Positions 20,331 to 62,308 of a DNA stretch of 64,000 nucleotides are shown in pieces. The notes beneath the pieces are model-generated. The model was given only the letters and a program-made list of their open reading frames with translations, was not told the origin of the DNA and ran no database searches. The stretch spans positions 62,001-126,000 of the forward strand of contig NZ_JAAAMU010000018.1 of the NCBI RefSeq assembly GCF_009909195.1, written 5' to 3'. Made by a program: the position numbers and the translations under genes. Position 1 is the first letter of the stretch, and the number at the start of each line of letters is the position of its first letter. Source of the stretch: Paenibacillus sacheonensis (GTDB lineage: Bacteria > Bacillota > Bacilli > Paenibacillales > Paenibacillaceae).

Positions 20331-20366
20331 ATAGGATAGCGAAATGGAACGAGATGAGTGCGGTGC

Positions 20367-20690
20367 TGCGCCTAGCAAATTTCGGCTTTGTGAAATCCGT
20401 CCTCGCCGCTGTCTGAAGTTCGTAGCTCGTCGCTGAACGCGTCTGCGCCTAGCAAATTTTGGCTTTGTGAAATCCGTCCTCGCCGCTACCTGCAGTTCGT
20501 CGCTCATTGCTGAACGCGTCTGCGCCGAGCAAGTTTCGTCTTTGTGAAGTCCATCGCTCCCCGCTGTCTGCACTTCGTCGCTCGTCGTTGATCCGCGTCT
20601 GCGCCGAATACATTTCGGCTTTGCGAAAACCATCGCTCGCCGCTATCAGAAGTTCGTCGCTCGTCGATATCGGCGTCTCCACCGAAACAG
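20367..20690. repeat. 77-79-bp tandem repeats
   Basis: Units begin at 20367, 20444, 20521, 20600 and (partial) 20678. Each holds TGCGCC(T/G)AGCAA, GGCTTTGTGAAATCC, CGCCGCT and GTTCGTCGCTCGTCG-like blocks. The first two copies are the most alike. The length is not a multiple of three and the open frames inside it are short, so it is treated as non-coding. Confidence 0.75.
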
Positions 20691-20960: not shown

Positions 20961-21039
20961 GATCCTGACTTATTAAATTACCGTTGAATCCACTAGCCAC
21001 GCATTTACCTGTTGCCCCATACAAGCATTCTGCCGGCTA

Positions 21040-21200
21040 TTCTACAGCTCTGCACCAAGCGATCCGCCGATCTGCCGGCTATTCTACAGCTCTGCACCAA
21101 GCGATCCGCCGATCTGCCGACCAGCCTACAGCTCTGCACCAAAGCGATCCGCCGACCAACCTGCAGCTTCGCACCAAGCGAAGCGCCAGCCAACACCAGT
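21040..21200. repeat. 42-bp tandem repeats
   Basis: The core GCTCTGCACCAAGCGATCC occurs at 21047, 21089 and 21131 (42 bp apart) and in a diverged, shorter copy at about 21166. The first two copies are almost identical over the whole 42 bp. The flank to 21358 holds further degenerate CACCAAGCGA-like pieces. No gene was recognised between 19878 and 21358. Confidence 0.75.
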
Positions 21201-21358
21201 CGCCACATCAAACGATCTGCCACCCGATTACCGCCCCGCACCAAGCGATCCAACGACCACTCTATGATCTCTGAACCAAGCGACCCGCCATCCAATACAA
21301 GTCACCTCACCGAATGATCCGCCTTTCTACCTACTCCTCTACCTACTTTTCTATCTGC

Positions 21359-39167: not shown

Positions 39168-39414
39168 CGGACTGCGGCGATGTGAGTATCGGTCGCGAGG
39201 CGGGTGTGCATGGCAGTGCGTGTAAGGCGCGGTAAGCTAGTGCGGTGCGTGTAAGCGCGGTAAGCCAGTGCGGTGCACCAAAACAGTATGCCCATGCGGT
39301 GCGTACCAAAGCAGCGCGCCGAAATTGTGCGCAATAGCCGTGCGCCAACATAGTGTGCAATAGCCGTGCGTCAAACAGGACCCCGTGCGGTGCCCCACAG
39401 CCGGTATTTAAAGC

Positions 39415-39500
39415 AGTGCCCCAAAGTGGTGCCCCAAGCAATACTCTAAAGCGGTGCCCCAAAGTGGTGCCCCAAGCAATACTCTAAAGCGGTGCCCCAA
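39415..39500. repeat. 38-bp tandem repeat of GTGCCCCAAAG units
   Basis: AAGCAATACTCTAAAG starts at 39436 and again at 39474, 38 bp apart, each followed by CGGTGCCCCAAAG. Shorter relatives of the same unit extend on both sides. Confidence 0.75.
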
Positions 39501-39527
39501 AGCGGCGCTCCAAGCAGTGCCCCAAAG

Positions 39528-39569
39528 CAGTGTTCCAAAGCCAATGGCTTTGGGGCACTGTTTTTTGTT
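39528..39569 (+). terminator. Strong terminator built from the repeat unit
   Basis: CAGTG-TT-CCAAAGCC pairs with GGCTTTGG-GG-CACTG around AAT (two mismatched positions), followed by TTTTTTGTTTT. The arms are the GTGCCCCAAAG unit of the preceding repeats and its complement. Confidence 0.85.
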
Positions 39570-46318: not shown

Positions 46319-46393
46319 AATAGGCGGGTGTCACGGTCCGCGAGGCGGGAATAGGATATCACAGGTGACATCTTGGTAACGGAGGAACAGCTT

Positions 46394-47077
46394 ATGAACG
46401 ATGCTAGGCAAGTGCCCGTAACATATGGGCAGCAGCGCGGCTTTCCGGGCGCCGGCGCCTTGGGCGGCATGCTCGGGGGAACCGCTCTGGGCAGCTTGAT
46501 GGGAGGCGGCGGCTACCCCAAAGGCGGTCTCATGGGCAGCATGCTGGGTGGCGGATCCAAAGGAGGCTTGCTCGGCACCATGCTCGGCGGCGGGGACGCG
46601 AAGGGCGGATTAATAGGCAGTATGTTAAAAGGCGGCTTTCCGGGAGGAGGCTTCTCCGGTAAAAAATTCCCCGGAGGAGGCTTCCCAGGTGGAGGTTTCC
46701 ACGGAGGCGGCTTTTCGGGAGGCGGTTTCCCAGGAGGGGGCTTCCCCGGAGGCGGCTTTCCTGGAGGAGGATTTCCGGGTGGAGGTTTTCCTGGAGGAGG
46801 CTTCCCCGGAGGGGGCTTTCCCGGAGGAGGTTTCCCGGGAGGAGGCTTCCCGGGAGGAGGCTTCCCAGGAGGGGGCTTCCCGGGAGGAGGCTTCCCCGGA
46901 GGTGGCTTCCCTGGTGGTGGCTTCCCCGGAGGCGGCTTTCCTGGAAGCGGCTTTCCTGGAGGAGGCTTCCCCGGAGGCGGCTTTCCAGGAGGAGGCTTCC
47001 CCGGAGGAGGCTTCCCCGGAGGAGGTTTCCCAGGTAGCTTTCTCCCCGGAAGAGCCTCCCAAGAAGCAGCAGGCTGA
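46394..47077 (+). CDS. FPGGG pentapeptide-repeat protein
   Basis: 227 aa from ATG 46394 (MNDARQVPVTYGQQRGFPGAG), with GGAGG 8 nt upstream. Three parts: a short polar start; about 65 residues of glycine-rich hydrophobic repeats (GGLMGSMLGGGSKGG, GGLLGTMLGGGDAKGG, GGLIGSMLKGG); then some 25 copies of F-P-G-G-G at residues 80-220, ending SFLPGRASQEAAG. No signal peptide. Not recognised as a known family. Composition recalls spore-coat or adhesive Gly-rich proteins. Coding potential is supported by the ribosome binding site and by synonymous variation among repeats. Confidence 0.75.
   Translation: MNDARQVPVTYGQQRGFPGAGALGGMLGGTALGSLMGGGGYPKGGLMGSMLGGGSKGGLLGTMLGGGDAKGGLIGSMLKGGFPGGGFSGKKFPGGGFPGGGFHGGGFSGGGFPGGGFPGGGFPGGGFPGGGFPGGGFPGGGFPGGGFPGGGFPGGGFPGGGFPGGGFPGGGFPGGGFPGGGFPGSGFPGGGFPGGGFPGGGFPGGGFPGGGFPGSFLPGRASQEAAG
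46625..47040. repeat. 15-bp tandem repeats encoding FPGGG
   Basis: About 25 units of GGAGGAGGCTTCCC-like sequence with third-position changes (TTC/TTT, GGA/GGC/GGG), which keep the peptide constant. This is the longest low-complexity tract in the window. Confidence 0.92.
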
Positions 47078-57928: not shown

Positions 57929-59428
57929 ATGAGTAACTGGCAAGGCAAGGCGTATACGGGCGATTCCAAGGTGCTGCAGCTGTTCGAGGAGCTGTCGCGG
58001 ATCCCGCGGGGATCGAGCAACGAGAAGGCCGTCAGCGATTTCGTGGCGGATTTCGCGCGGCAGCGCGGCTGTACGGTGCTGCAGGACGACAAGCTCAACC
58101 TGATCATCCGCAAGCCGGCGGCATCCGGTTACGAGCAGGCGCCGATCGTTATTTTCCAAGGCCACTTGGACATGGTGTGCGAGAAGAACAAAACGACGGT
58201 GCATGATTTCACCAAGGACCCGATTCGTTTCCGGATCGAGGGCGACATGATCTACGCGGAAGGCACGACGCTCGGCGCGGACAACGGCATTGCCGTGGCG
58301 ACGGCGATGGCGATCATCGATTCGCCGGATATGGCGCATCCCGAGCTGGAAATTCTGCTGACGACGGAAGAAGAAACGAGCATGGGCGGCGCGTTCTATC
58401 TGGACGCTGCTCCGCTGAAGGGCCGCATGATGATCAATTTCGACTCGGACCGCGAAGGCATCCTGTTCGTGAGCAGCGCCGGCGGAATCAATGCGTACCA
58501 CTCGGTGCCGCTTGCCTGGAAGGAAGCAGGATCGGCGGCAGGCGAGCCGTATACGATCAGCGTGCAAGGCTTGATGGGCGGCCATTCCGGCGACGACATC
58601 ATTCACGAGCGCGGCAACGCCAACAAGCTGCTGGGCCGGGTGCTGGACGATCTGCGCCGCCATGCGGCATTCGATCTCGCCGGCGTCAGCGGCGGCATGA
58701 AGGTTAACGCCATCCCGCGCGAAGCGGAGGCTGCGGTCTACCTGAGCGGAGAAAGCAAGGCGGCGGCCGAAGCCCGAATCGCGGAGCTGAACCGCATCCT
58801 GAAGGACGAGTTCCAAGCGAGCGACAAGGGCGTCGCCGTCGTGCTGCAACCCGGATTCGACGAGAAAGGCGGAGCGGGGGCCGCGGCAGCGGCTGCATCC
58901 GGCAAGGCGTTCACGGATGAAGTGAAAAACCTTGTGATTCGCCTCCTGACGCTCATCCCGAACGGGGTGCTCAGCATGGACAAGGCGATCGGCAACCTCG
59001 TGCGCACGTCGTCCAATCTCGGCGTCGTCTCGGTAAACGACACGCATGTCGTCATGCAAAGCCTGTCGCGCAGCTCGGTCCGATCGCAAACCGATGAAGT
59101 CGTGCGCGTGATGGAGACGCTGGGAGAGACCGCGGGCTGCGAGTTCCGGACCGATCATTATTTCCCGGGCTGGCCGTATCGCGCGGATTCCAAGCTGCGG
59201 CCGGTCGTCGAGGCGGCGTACGAGAAGCGATTCGGCAAGCCGATCGAGATCAAGGCGATCCATGCCGGCCTGGAGTGCGGCGTGCTGATCGAGAAGATGC
59301 CGGACCTCGATGCGGTCTCGTTCGGACCGAACATGTACGAGATCCATACTCCGGACGAACATCTATCGATCTCGTCGGTGGAACGGACATGGCCGTTTAT
59401 CGAAGACGTGCTGCGGTCGCTGAAGTAG
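57929..59428 (+). CDS. pepD: Aminoacyl-histidine dipeptidase (Xaa-His dipeptidase, M20C)
   Basis: 499 aa, AAGGAGG before the ATG. Hydrolyses Xaa-His dipeptides such as carnosine, and some other dipeptides. Metal site: FQGHLDMVCEK, TTLGADNGIAVA, LTTEEETSMGGA, INFDSD and a final His in CGVLIEKMPD...HTPDEHLSI. The lid domain holds VQGLMGGHSGDDIIHERGNA (about residues 210-230). Standalone gene preceded by a spacer with a TTGACA-poor promoter. Confidence 0.95.
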   Translation: MSNWQGKAYTGDSKVLQLFEELSRIPRGSSNEKAVSDFVADFARQRGCTVLQDDKLNLIIRKPAASGYEQAPIVIFQGHLDMVCEKNKTTVHDFTKDPIRFRIEGDMIYAEGTTLGADNGIAVATAMAIIDSPDMAHPELEILLTTEEETSMGGAFYLDAAPLKGRMMINFDSDREGILFVSSAGGINAYHSVPLAWKEAGSAAGEPYTISVQGLMGGHSGDDIIHERGNANKLLGRVLDDLRRHAAFDLAGVSGGMKVNAIPREAEAAVYLSGESKAAAEARIAELNRILKDEFQASDKGVAVVLQPGFDEKGGAGAAAAAASGKAFTDEVKNLVIRLLTLIPNGVLSMDKAIGNLVRTSSNLGVVSVNDTHVVMQSLSRSSVRSQTDEVVRVMETLGETAGCEFRTDHYFPGWPYRADSKLRPVVEAAYEKRFGKPIEIKAIHAGLECGVLIEKMPDLDAVSFGPNMYEIHTPDEHLSISSVERTWPFIEDVLRSLK

Positions 59429-59585
59429 GCGAACCAGGGCTGCTTGCGGGCGGCAGGCAGCTTTCGCTGCGCTGCGCTGGTGTGGCGAGCAACTCGCGTT
59501 ACTGGTCCGGGAGAAGCAGTTTGCGTGGTGCGGTCTGGTGTCGCGGGCAACTCGCGTTGCGGGTCGGGGAAGCAGTGTGCGTCGT

Positions 59586-59785
59586 GCTGCTTGGTTTGGT
59601 GGCGTGGTCCTGGCAGCGACTTGCGTTGCTCTATCCGGTGTGGCGAGCAACTCGCCCTTGTGGGGTCCGGGCAGCAGTGCGTCGCGCTGCTTGGTTTGGT
59701 GGCGTGGTCCTGGCAGCGACTTGCGTTGCTCTATCCGGTGTGGCGAGCAACTCGCCCTTGTGGGGTCCGGGCAGCAGATGGCACT
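59586..59785. repeat. 100-bp tandem duplication
   Basis: GCTGCTTGGTTTGGTGGCG begins at 59586 and again at 59686. The following roughly 92 bp are identical, ending GGGTCCGGGCAGCAG. The period is not a multiple of three. Partial older copies (GCGAGCAACTCGC, GGGTCGGGGAAGCAG) lie just upstream. Confidence 0.88.
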
Positions 59786-59840
59786 GCTTGGTCGTCAGCG
59801 ATCCGTCCGAATGGCTCGCCCAATCCTGCGTACCGTTCAT

Positions 59841-60027
59841 TCATGCATAAAATGCAATATTACTGCTCCAGTTAAGACCTCAAAACGCAAATTTATGCAC
59901 AAACTGCAAAAATTAAAGGCAAAAAGGTAGATATGGCGTTAATGAAGAGGGGAAAGTTGTATTTCCTGCAACTTTTGGCTCGTACATGCTGCTTTGGAGC
60001 GCGAAATGTTGCATTTCATACAAAAAA
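59841..60027. repeat. Array of four TGCA-centred inverted repeats about 50 bp apart
   Basis: TGCATAAAATGCA near 59843, TATGCACAAACTGCAAA near 59891, TTGTATTTCCTGCAA near 59954 and GTTGCATTTCATACAA near 60006. The first two and last two are related by inversion. Confidence 0.6.
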
Positions 60028-60060
60028 CAGCCAGGCCCTTTGTGGGCTTGGCTGTTTTTT
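60022..60060. terminator. Bidirectional terminator
   Basis: AAAAAACAGCCAGGCCC pairs with GGGCTTGGCTGTTTTTT (one G-T pair) around TTTGT, near the end of the MarR gene. Confidence 0.85.
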
Positions 60061-60115
60061 GTGCATCTTAACTCTTGTGCATCTTAACTCGAGGGAAGCA
60101 GCTGTGAATGCGAAC

Positions 60116-61042
60116 TCAGCTGCTATCCTTCCCTGCGAATGGCCCCGCGCCTACAATCTTGCTAGCAAGGACAGCGAGCTGCGAGCGTTCCGGCTCCGTA
60201 AGAACTTCGACGGCGGCATGCAGCTGACGCTCGATCTCGGCGCCGCCCGCTTGGACCAGCTGCAGTCCGGCGGAAGTGATGCGCACGTTGAATCCGCGCT
60301 TATCGCTCGTAGATGCGATACGTTCGACGAGTCCGCGGCGTTCGGCGCGATCGACCAGGCCGGTAATGCTCGACTTGTCGAGTTTCAGATGCTGGGCCAG
60401 CTGCAGCATGCTTGGCTCTCTGTCGCGCACGATGCCGAGCAGGCGGGTTTGGATAATGGAAAGATCATGTTCGCCTCCGACCCGGCCGAGTATGGATTGG
60501 ACGAGGAACGACAGCTGGACTAAGCCATCCACGATCGACAGTTCGTTTGGATGACGGGCGGAGCCCATGTTCATCTCGGAGGTCTTATTTATGCTTTTAT
60601 CTATGTTCTGATCTGGCCTGCTATCTATGTTCTTATCTGAGCTATTATCTAAGTTCTGATCTATGCTCTTGTTTACATTTCGTTCAACGCTCTTGTCAAC
60701 GTTTTGTTCTGCGTTTTGTTCTATATTCTGTTCTGCGTTCTTGTCTATGTTTTGTTCTGCGTCCTGTTCCACGCTCTTGTCTACGTTCTGATCTACGCTC
60801 TTGTCTATGTTCTGATCTACGCTCTTGTCTGTGATCTGATCTATGCCGTCTATAGTATCGACTACGTTCTTATTCTTGTTCTTGATCCTGTCCTTGTCCT
60901 TGATTTTGTTTTTCTTGATCTTGTCCTTGTCCTTGTTCTTGACCTTACTTTTGACTTTGGACTTCTCTTTGCCCTGGTTCTTTTCCTGGTCCTTTTCCTG
61001 GTCCTTTTCCTGATCTTTCTCCTTGCCTTTGTCTTTATCCAT
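60116..61042 (-). CDS. MarR family regulator with long repetitive N-terminal extension
   Basis: 308 aa from ATG 61042 (MDKDKGKEKDQEKDQ), with GGGGGTGA 6 nt upstream; GTG 61051 is too close to that site. Residues 1-60 are almost only K, D, E, Q and N. Residues about 60-150 are degenerate 4-8 residue repeats (NVDKSVEQ, NIDKNAEQ, NIEQNAEQ). From about 157 a normal MarR domain follows: LSIVDGLVQLSFLVQSILGRV, SMLQLAQHLKLDKSSITGLVDRAERRGLVERIASTSDKRGFNVRIT. The internal ATG at 60574 lacks a ribosome binding site. The extension DNA is visibly poorer in GC than its surroundings. Divergent from the MDR oxidoreductase gene. Confidence 0.85.
   Translation of the reverse strand: MDKDKGKEKDQEKDQEKDQEKNQGKEKSKVKSKVKNKDKDKIKKNKIKDKDRIKNKNKNVVDTIDGIDQITDKSVDQNIDKSVDQNVDKSVEQDAEQNIDKNAEQNIEQNAEQNVDKSVERNVNKSIDQNLDNSSDKNIDSRPDQNIDKSINKTSEMNMGSARHPNELSIVDGLVQLSFLVQSILGRVGGEHDLSIIQTRLLGIVRDREPSMLQLAQHLKLDKSSITGLVDRAERRGLVERIASTSDKRGFNVRITSAGLQLVQAGGAEIERQLHAAVEVLTEPERSQLAVLASKIVGAGPFAGKDSS
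60574..61042 (-). repeat. Low-complexity coding repeats in the MarR extension
   Basis: On the minus strand the tract runs from a purine-rich KDKD/KDQE block (about 61042-60870) to irregular units of GAACAAAACGT-GACAAGAGCG (about 60830-60600). Units vary in length in multiples of three, so the frame is kept. Confidence 0.8.
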
Positions 61043-61258
61043 TACTCTCACCCCCAGGTTTGATGTATTTCAAAGCCTATAGCCCATGGGCACGCTAAGC
61101 AGCAAATTACCTTCACTTTAAACGAATATCCTATTTCACCTCGAACTTTTCCTTTAAGCAAACTTCGCCTTCAAACCGAGCTTCTCCTTCAAGCCGAACT
61201 TTTCATCCAAGAAACTTCCCGTTCGGGCCCTGCATTCCCGCCCATTATAACATAACCG

Positions 61259-61287
61259 TTGACTTTGTACGTATAGCAAACTATATT
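61259..61287 (+). promoter_or_regulatory. Promoter of the MDR oxidoreductase gene
   Basis: -35 TTGACT (61259-61264), 17-bp spacer, -10 TATATT (61282-61287), immediately followed by the MarR-type palindrome. Confidence 0.75.
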
Positions 61288-61303
61288 TGTTTGTGTAACA
61301 AAC
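61277..61303. promoter_or_regulatory. MarR-type operators overlapping the promoter
   Basis: Two overlapping inverted repeats: CAAAC-N7-GTTTG (61277-61293) and GTTTGT-GTA-ACAAAC (61289-61303). They cover and follow the -10, consistent with repression by the divergent MarR protein. Confidence 0.7.
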
Positions 61304-61333
61304 TAAATTATCATGATTGGAGGCCCTTTCCCG

Positions 61334-62308
61334 ATGATGCATGCTGCCGTTGTACATTCGTTCGATGCGGCTCCGAAATTCGAAAAGTTCGATATGCCCA
61401 ATCCCGTCAACAAGCATGACGTCCTTGTCGACGTCCTTGCGGCGGGATTGCATCCTCGCGTGCGTTCGCAAGCAAACGGCTCGCACTACGCGAGCACAGG
61501 CGAACTGCCTTTGATACCCGGCATTGACGGCGTTGGGCGGCTGCAGGATGGCGGGCTGGTCTACTTCGTTGCCCCCGATACTGCGCTGGGAACGTTCGCG
61601 GACAAAGCGGTCATCGACGTGCGCCGAAGCGTTCCTTTGCCCGAAGGGGCTGATCCGGTTCGAATCGCCGCGGCCATGAACCCGGCCATGTCGGCCTGGG
61701 TCGCGCTGCGCCGCCGGGCGGAGTGGCAGCCAGGGTACAAGGTGCTCGTTCATGGCGCAACCGGAAATTCCGGGCATATGGCCGTTCAGATCGCCAAGCT
61801 GCTAGGTGCCGGTCAGGTCATCGGAGCCGGTCGCGATCAACAGCGTCTCGACGCTCTTCCGGCGCTCGGCGCATATCGGGTCGTATCGCTGGCGGGCGAT
61901 CCTGAGGCTGCTTCCGAACGTCTTGGCGAGGCCGCCTGCGAAGTGGACATCGTCATCGACTACCTATGGGGCAAGCCTGCCGAGCTGGCGATGACGGCTA
62001 TGCTGACACGACGATCCGATCGGAGTCGGGCGTTGACCTGGATCCAAATCGGTTCCGTCGCCGGTCCAACGGCTGCCGTGCCTTCCGCCGCGCTGCGATC
62101 GGCTAATTTCAAGCTGCTCGGCAGCGGCCAAGGGTCCGTTACGCCGGCGGGCTATTTGGCTGAATTCCCGGCGTTGATCGACGCGATTGCAAGCGGCAGC
62201 CTTCGCGTGAATGCGGCAGCTTATCCGCTTGCCCGCGTGGAGGAAATTTGGGCGGCGCCTGCGGCTGCCGGAGAGCGGGTTGTTTTCGTCCCGGCGATGC
62301 ACACGTGA
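61334..62308 (+). CDS. MDR-superfamily oxidoreductase (quinone oxidoreductase-like)
   Basis: 324 aa from ATG 61334 (MMHAAVVHSFDAAPKFEKF), GGAGG about 10 nt upstream. GroES-like N-domain (PVNKHDVLVDVLAAGLHPRVRSQANGSHY), then the Rossmann domain with LVHGATGNSGHMAVQIAKLLGAGQVIGAGR. No zinc-binding Cys cluster, so it belongs to the zinc-free quinone/enal reductase group. Controlled by the overlapping MarR sites, a common arrangement for electrophile- or quinone-induced genes. Confidence 0.9.
   Translation: MMHAAVVHSFDAAPKFEKFDMPNPVNKHDVLVDVLAAGLHPRVRSQANGSHYASTGELPLIPGIDGVGRLQDGGLVYFVAPDTALGTFADKAVIDVRRSVPLPEGADPVRIAAAMNPAMSAWVALRRRAEWQPGYKVLVHGATGNSGHMAVQIAKLLGAGQVIGAGRDQQRLDALPALGAYRVVSLAGDPEAASERLGEAACEVDIVIDYLWGKPAELAMTAMLTRRSDRSRALTWIQIGSVAGPTAAVPSAALRSANFKLLGSGQGSVTPAGYLAEFPALIDAIASGSLRVNAAAYPLARVEEIWAAPAAAGERVVFVPAMHT

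What the first reader, a model, noticed from the sequence alone, without database searches (positions are those of the whole stretch)
60116..61042. MarR regulator with a roughly 155-residue low-complexity K/D/E/Q/N extension
A normal MarR domain begins near residue 157. Everything before it is charged repeats: a lysine/aspartate block and then NVDKSVEQ-like units. The frame is kept through all length changes, the first ATG has a good ribosome binding site, and the only internal ATG near the domain border has none. MarR proteins are usually 140-160 aa. The extension may be a disordered tether, a nucleic-acid or metal interacting tail, or an expanding repeat that tunes repression. It sits opposite a gene with clear MarR operators.
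Basis: partly seen in the sequence, partly recalled or inferred. Interest (0 to 1): 0.75.

Follow-up and report, generated by a model that had tools for sequence, protein, structure and literature searches.

The report
Repressor with new disordered repeat tail
A soil bacterium's otherwise ordinary gene repressor appears to carry a long, floppy, highly charged tail that no examined relative has, apparently made by turning repeat-filled DNA in front of the gene into protein; it is unusual, but nothing yet shows that the tail does anything.

Summary
ORF 60116-61042(-) encodes 308 aa: 156 residues of K/D/E/Q/N/S repeats, then a MarR repressor. The repressor is the conserved divergent partner of a PIG3-like dehydrogenase gene in a Paenibacillus-like genome, with operator-like and promoter DNA intact.

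The tail is lineage-specific. All 48 orthologue loci read (some duplicates) lack it. No other genome with the gene has a long enough repeat frame (32 in the family sample, 33 in the order sample).

It is probably translated. ATG 61042 has an exceptional Shine-Dalgarno site (-14.3 kcal/mol); ATG 60574, at the orthologues' start, has none (-0.4). Synonymous change between repeat copies is favoured in this frame in 4 of 5 tests. Absence of stops alone is weak evidence.

Best reading: repeats expanded between promoter and old start codon, displaced the ribosome site, and became a disordered tail (+11, then -13). An effect on DNA binding is a guess; a passenger is nearly as likely. Metal binding (no His/Cys) and fast length switching (units about 36% diverged) lack support.

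The parts
60116..61042 (-). MarR-family repressor ORF, 308 aa, with 156-residue N-terminal extension
60575..61042 (-). Low-complexity extension, codons 1-156; absent from every orthologue examined
60869..61042 (-). K-rich block, codons 1-58 (net charge +11)
60824..60868 (-). Joint segment, codons 59-73 (net charge -3)
60584..60823 (-). 20 tetrapeptide units, consensus NVDQ (12 bp each, contiguous), codons 74-153, net charge -9
60119..60574 (-). MarR part, from Met157, which aligns with the start of most orthologues; no SD at this ATG
61048..61055 (-). Shine-Dalgarno GGGGGTGA, 5 nt before ATG 61042
   Evidence: -14.3 kcal/mol with the anti-SD; sequence
61161..61211 (-). Leader repeat (18-bp imperfect units), possibly degenerate copies of the ancestral SD region
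   Evidence: TRF; suggestive: best-match P 0.01-0.05 with three probes, 0.73 with the 8-base SD core
61244..61249 (-). -10 box TATAAT of the marR promoter (assigned by eye; conserved in the leader alignment)
61261..61309 (.). Conserved operator-like inverted repeats between the divergent genes
   Evidence: no binding tested
61334..62308 (+). Divergent zinc-type/MDR dehydrogenase, PIG3-quinone-oxidoreductase-like (start at 61334 chosen by comparison with orthologues)

Best explanation
An ordinary MarR repressor of a divergent quinone-oxidoreductase-type gene has gained a 156-residue translated, disordered tail. Tandem-repeat expansion between the marR promoter and the old start codon separated the start from its ribosome-binding site. 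Translation now begins 468 nt upstream, at an ATG behind a very strong SD, so former leader DNA became coding sequence. SHOWN by computation: the ORF, its absence from examined relatives, where the tail sits relative to the orthologues' start, the SD energies, the conserved operator-like DNA and gene pair. INFERRED: translation, the order of events, disorder, that this MarR represses the neighbour. GUESSED: function of the tail. Because a K-rich segment (+11) precedes an acidic/polar one (-13) on a DNA-binding protein, the most likely effect, if any, is a modest change in non-specific DNA affinity, self-shielding or turnover; a tolerated passenger is nearly as likely.
For: Strong SD at 61042 (-14.3) against -0.4 at 60574; 32 distinct orthologue leaders have a median best SD of -9.4, range -13.2 to -5.6 (caveats in Tried and rejected). 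In the 23-protein alignment most orthologues start at Met157. pN/pS between repeat copies is lowest in the ORF frame in 4 of 5 lag tests: K block (codons 3-42) lag 6 0.56 vs 0.82/1.52, lag 12 0.26 vs 1.32/1.19; tetra block lag 24 0.46 vs 0.59/1.22, lag 48 0.55 vs 0.60/0.92. 0 TAR against 14 CAR codons although 21 of 70 third-position pyrimidines are T (P about 0.007 if independent). Promoter and operator-like DNA conserved in 7 of 7 aligned leaders, chosen by me; divergent dehydrogenase found in 35 of 44 loci. Domain pLDDT high, tail low.
Against: Stop-freeness is not significant under repeat-aware nulls. Third-position excess is absent against a consensus-based null (24 observed, 23.6 expected). 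Tetra-block pN/pS at lag 12 does not single out the ORF frame (0.61 vs 0.69 and 0.56). The genome holds many diverged tandem arrays, including a 12-bp array whose translation reads SAEQSVDQ-like in a place that looks noncoding to me. No expression data. Units share ancestry, so the codon tests are not independent.
Confidence: 0.68

Rival explanations
1. The array is a noncoding minisatellite in an expanded 5' leader. The MarR starts at the ancestral ATG 60574 (or 60568), and the open frame is luck.
For: Tandem arrays are common in this genome (30 of score >=80 in 464 kb, two of them the tail itself; the coding status of most others was not determined); a leader array sits just upstream; stop-freeness is only P about 0.2-0.45 under repeat-aware nulls.
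Against: No SD at 60574 (-0.4), near background at 60568 (-4.6), against -14.3 at 61042; orthologue starts have SDs; frame-specific synonymous bias, clearest in the K block.
Confidence: 0.2
2. The tail is a functional tuning device (a sub-case of the best explanation, not exclusive of it): the basic block scans or tethers DNA while the acidic block shields the winged helix, so the tail sets repression strength.
For: Charge-block layout (+11 then -13; pI 9.9 and 4.1). Lysine-rich low-complexity regions are enriched in bacterial DNA-binding proteins (PMC6821194, passages). The HigA2 disordered region regulates transcription through contacts with operator DNA (PMC11006873, abstract).
Against: No orthologue examined has it, although the aligned leaders carry near-identical operator-like DNA; conservation of the tail cannot be measured; no binding data.
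Confidence: 0.2
3. The array is a contingency locus whose unit number switches or grades repression between cells.
For: A tandem array with 12-bp units in a regulator gene.
Against: Units about 36% diverged, longest exact repeat 22 bp; 12-bp steps keep the frame, so on/off switching is not expected.
Confidence: 0.04
4. Assembly or sequencing error created or reshaped the repeats.
For: Draft genome of 46 contigs; raw reads not available.
Against: No exact repeat longer than 22 bp; diverged units; continuous frame into the domain.
Confidence: 0.03

Closest known systems
Short MarR orthologues beside the same dehydrogenase in Paenibacillaceae and actinobacteria
   Same: Domain (49-70% identity), divergent gene pair in 35 of 44 loci, operator-like and promoter DNA (actinobacterial leaders compared only by eye)
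   Different: About 130-171 aa in the alignment, with no low-complexity tail
MarR structures by fold: S. aureus MepR, Sulfolobus ST1710, E. coli MarR
   Same: MarR fold (target-normalised TM-score up to 0.79 in the listed rows)
   Different: Chains of 124-191 residues in the lists seen, too short for such a tail
HigA2 antitoxin-repressor (PMC11006873, abstract and outline seen)
   Same: A bacterial repressor whose disordered segment modulates operator binding
   Different: A toxin-antitoxin helix-turn-helix protein whose tail also neutralises a toxin and is sensitive to scrambling; here no function is shown
Lysine-rich low-complexity regions of bacterial nucleic-acid-binding proteins (PMC6821194, passages seen)
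   Same: Lysine-rich low-complexity segment on a DNA-binding protein
   Different: That paper's title calls such regions highly conserved; this one is lineage-specific and mixed-charge

Membership tests
MarR family | MarR winged helix-turn-helix domain | tested here: met
   Pfam MarR_2 41.3 bits and MarR 34.2 bits, over cut-offs 27 and 24.6; fold matches
MarR family | Compact protein of about 140-160 aa (typical, not required; recalled) | tested here: not met
   308-aa ORF; the part from Met157 alone is 152 aa
MarR family | Inverted-repeat operator in a divergent intergenic region | tested here: met
   Conserved operator-like repeats by sequence; binding itself not tested
MarR family | Homodimer with ligand- or oxidation-responsive DNA release | not testable with these tools
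   Monomer model only
A named MarR equivalog (HpaR, OhrR, SlyA, MprA and others) | Score above the curated NCBIfam cut-off | tested here: not met
   Best of 8 hits HpaR, 38.6 bits against cut-off 121.2
HucR/PecS/MftR (UrtR) type MarR with N-terminal extension | Short structured N-terminal helix (recalled) | tested here: inconclusive
   Helices 42-64 and 99-121 predicted only at pLDDT about 50-60; tail far longer
Simple-sequence contingency locus | Near-identical short repeats prone to slippage (recalled) | tested here: not met
   Mean unit divergence 0.361, longest exact repeat 22 bp

The most novel reading that the evidence does not exclude
A bacterial repressor acquired a large disordered domain de novo. 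Tandem duplications of its own leader, possibly including its ribosome-binding site, displaced the start codon, and the resulting charge-block tail (basic, then acidic) now acts in cis as a DNA-search arm plus DNA-mimic brake that resets repression of the neighbouring gene.
Probability: 0.15. Interest if true: 0.7.

Novelty: new variant of a known kind. Interest (0 to 1): 0.42.

Why it matters
If translated, this is a clean natural experiment. The same domain, operator-like DNA and neighbouring gene exist with and without a 156-residue disordered tail, and the tail's origin from leader DNA can be placed to the codon. That would make two open questions testable: how bacterial proteins gain disordered regions, and whether such tails change repressor behaviour at birth or only later.

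Tried and rejected
Metal-binding tail: rejected, no His or Cys. Structured leader or known RNA element: no Rfam match at gathering threshold in 59400-61400; the leader plus start folds no better than shuffles (z +1.23). Contingency locus: rejected on repeat purity. The extension as a shared module: apart from itself, the own-genome search gave three weak hits at E up to 1, two in one C23 open frame with VERQ-like repeats and one in C46; a degenerate 24-base pattern matched twice, both inside this gene. A second extended orthologue: G458 has a 245-aa stop-to-stop frame, but it runs through the promoter and the start behind CGGAGTGA gives 149 aa; L007, L025, L053, L062 and L074 have 181-206 aa stop-to-stop frames for the same reason. 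Stop-depletion as proof of coding: tried and found weak. Array period as evidence: 13 of 30 arrays of score >=80, the tail's own two included, have a period divisible by 3 (my count), so it says little. Long MarR_2 frames in congeners (253-373 aa among the listed, capped rows) were not read; I did not determine whether they are fusions or tails. Literature: listings were seen (2-20 papers listed each) and searches returned none; I saw no report of such a MarR in those listings, which is not proof of absence.

Rows and choices to know. Loci read: 21, L020 only, 22, 4, together 48; at least five repeat another genome or an identical protein (L020/L007, L021/L008, L054/L009, L058/L010, L064/L011). 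Orthologues without a fetched locus (G379, G457, G470, G497, G504, G506, G511) were judged only by open-frame length, all 166 aa or less; L074 and G506 carry an in-frame stop inside the match. In some searches only 9 candidates per genome were scored. A1 holds 22 orthologues and A2 six relatives, chosen by me; their start codons are my choice from ORF and SD, and L012 starts later than Met157. One search takes, per orthologue, the best of several candidate starts; for seven of 32 rows (L011, L063, L065-L069) the pick is an internal codon, not the GGAGTGA start. The same choice near the window's domain border gives only -4.6. Actinobacterial loci were not.

Full report
WHAT IS THERE. The minus-strand ORF 60116-61042 encodes 308 aa. 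Pfam finds MarR_2 at 192-249 and MarR at 211-249, both over the curated cut-offs. Codons 1-156 are low complexity: K 33, D 26, N 20, Q 14, I 13, E, S and V 11 each among the first 154. Codons 1-58 are largely xK dipeptides (net +11), 59-73 a joint (net -3), 74-153 twenty 12-bp tetrapeptide units with consensus NVDQ (net -9). Among 4730 stop-to-stop stretches from 1.264 Mb (about 17%) of this genome, this one has the highest K+D+E+Q+N content in any 80-residue window.

CONTEXT. The window lies in a 7.44-Mb, 46-contig genome. Of the 12 named orthologue loci, the five closest are Paenibacillus and seven are actinobacteria. The divergent neighbour 61334-62308 is a medium-chain dehydrogenase; its best NCBIfam hit is PIG3-type quinone oxidoreductase, below cut-off (72 against 297 bits). 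A relative of it lies divergent to the MarR in 35 of 44 orthologue loci (duplicates included), among them 6 of the 7 actinobacterial ones; the other 9 show none in the fetched DNA. A seven-sequence leader alignment, window included, shows conserved operator-like repeats and -10 region. The regulatory circuit therefore looks intact; that this MarR represses the neighbour is inferred.

LINEAGE RESTRICTION. In the genus, 8 of 21 other genomes have the gene (E <= 1e-20). In the family sample of 394 genomes there are 32 besides the window's own, in the order sample of 392 there are 33 besides it; the samples overlap, and my union is 43 genomes. Open frames are at most 245 aa against 317 here, and the 245 is promoter read-through. 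All 48 loci whose upstream DNA I read lack the tail. In the alignment of 23 proteins, window Met157-Asn158 falls on the start of most orthologues (L012 starts later). So the tail is added upstream of the old start, not inserted in the domain.

IS IT TRANSLATED? For: pairing with the anti-SD is -14.3 kcal/mol at ATG 61042; 0.29% of the window's 1044 minus-strand ATGs do as well; the mean is -3.8. ATG 60574 has -0.4 and ATG 60568 -4.6. The median best value in 32 distinct orthologue leaders is -9.4, range -13.2 to -5.6 (caveats in Tried and rejected). Comparing repeat copies, pN/pS is lowest in the ORF frame in four of five lag tests, clearest in the K block (codons 3-42) at lag 12 (0.26 against 1.32 and 1.19); the exception is the tetra block at lag 12 (0.61 against 0.69 and 0.56). 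There are 14 CAR and no TAR codons, whereas 21 of 70 third-position pyrimidines are T. Against or neutral: for the tetra block a consensus-based null gives P = 0.23 for no stop and no third-position excess (24 against 23.6); a duplication-and-mutation null gives P of 0.45 and 0.28 at unit divergences 0.31 and 0.40, around the observed 0.36. The dinucleotide-shuffle value (0.0008) ignores the repeats and overstates the case. My weight rests on the start sites.

ORIGIN. Tandem arrays are common in this genome (30 of score >=80 in 464 kb, the tail's two included). The leader at 61161-61211 has its own 18-bp array. Its units resemble the SD neighbourhood of L053, the closest orthologue in the family sample (11 of 14 matches at three places; P of the best match 0.01-0.05 with three probes; the 8-base SD core alone is not significant, P 0.73). 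So copying of the old ribosome-site region is suggested, not shown. About 200 nt of leader and 468 nt of tail now lie between the -10 box and the old start, where the six aligned relatives have about 35-75 nt by my reading (L026, not aligned, has more).

HOW IT MAY WORK. AlphaFold2 gives 10-residue mean pLDDT of 80-97 over residues 171-300 and 50-60 in the tail, with low-confidence helices at 42-64 and 99-121. The model matches solved MarR structures. The tail carries +11 in residues 1-60 and -13 in 61-156. A basic segment could add non-specific DNA contacts and the acidic segment could compete with DNA; this is inference. Lysine-rich low-complexity regions are enriched in bacterial DNA-binding proteins (PMC6821194, passages), and a disordered region modulates operator binding in HigA2 (PMC11006873, abstract and outline). 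A passenger tail of little effect is nearly as likely. No His or Cys argues against metal binding. Impure repeats argue against rapid length variation.

VERDICT. Observation confirmed; interpretation partly supported. It is a MarR repressor by domain, with a lineage-specific, probably translated, probably leader-derived disordered tail: a new variant of a known kind, unusual but functionally unproven.

Noticed in passing
window 46373-47077 (+): 234-aa ORF with about 27 copies of a 15-bp GGFPG-type repeat; a glycine-rich low-complexity protein.
   Followed up: no
window 59537-59777, 20366-20666, 21029-21289, 39409-39541: Tandem arrays, mostly of 35-100 bp period, that look noncoding to me; the genome seems rich in diverged minisatellites.
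   Followed up: partly
L030/L031 (G000:C23 77924-78553): 1327-aa open frame with VERQVERQVEEQ repeats, next to genes that look like phage-tail or contractile-injection structural proteins (by eye).
   Followed up: no
L032 (G000:C46 77424-77522): A separate 12-bp array translating as SAEQSAEQSVDQSADQ, similar in style to the MarR tail but in a place that looks noncoding to me.
   Followed up: partly
L012-L018: Six of seven actinobacterial loci (Kribbella and others) carry the same divergent MarR-dehydrogenase pair, with similar operator-like DNA by eye, suggesting transfer across phyla.
   Followed up: no
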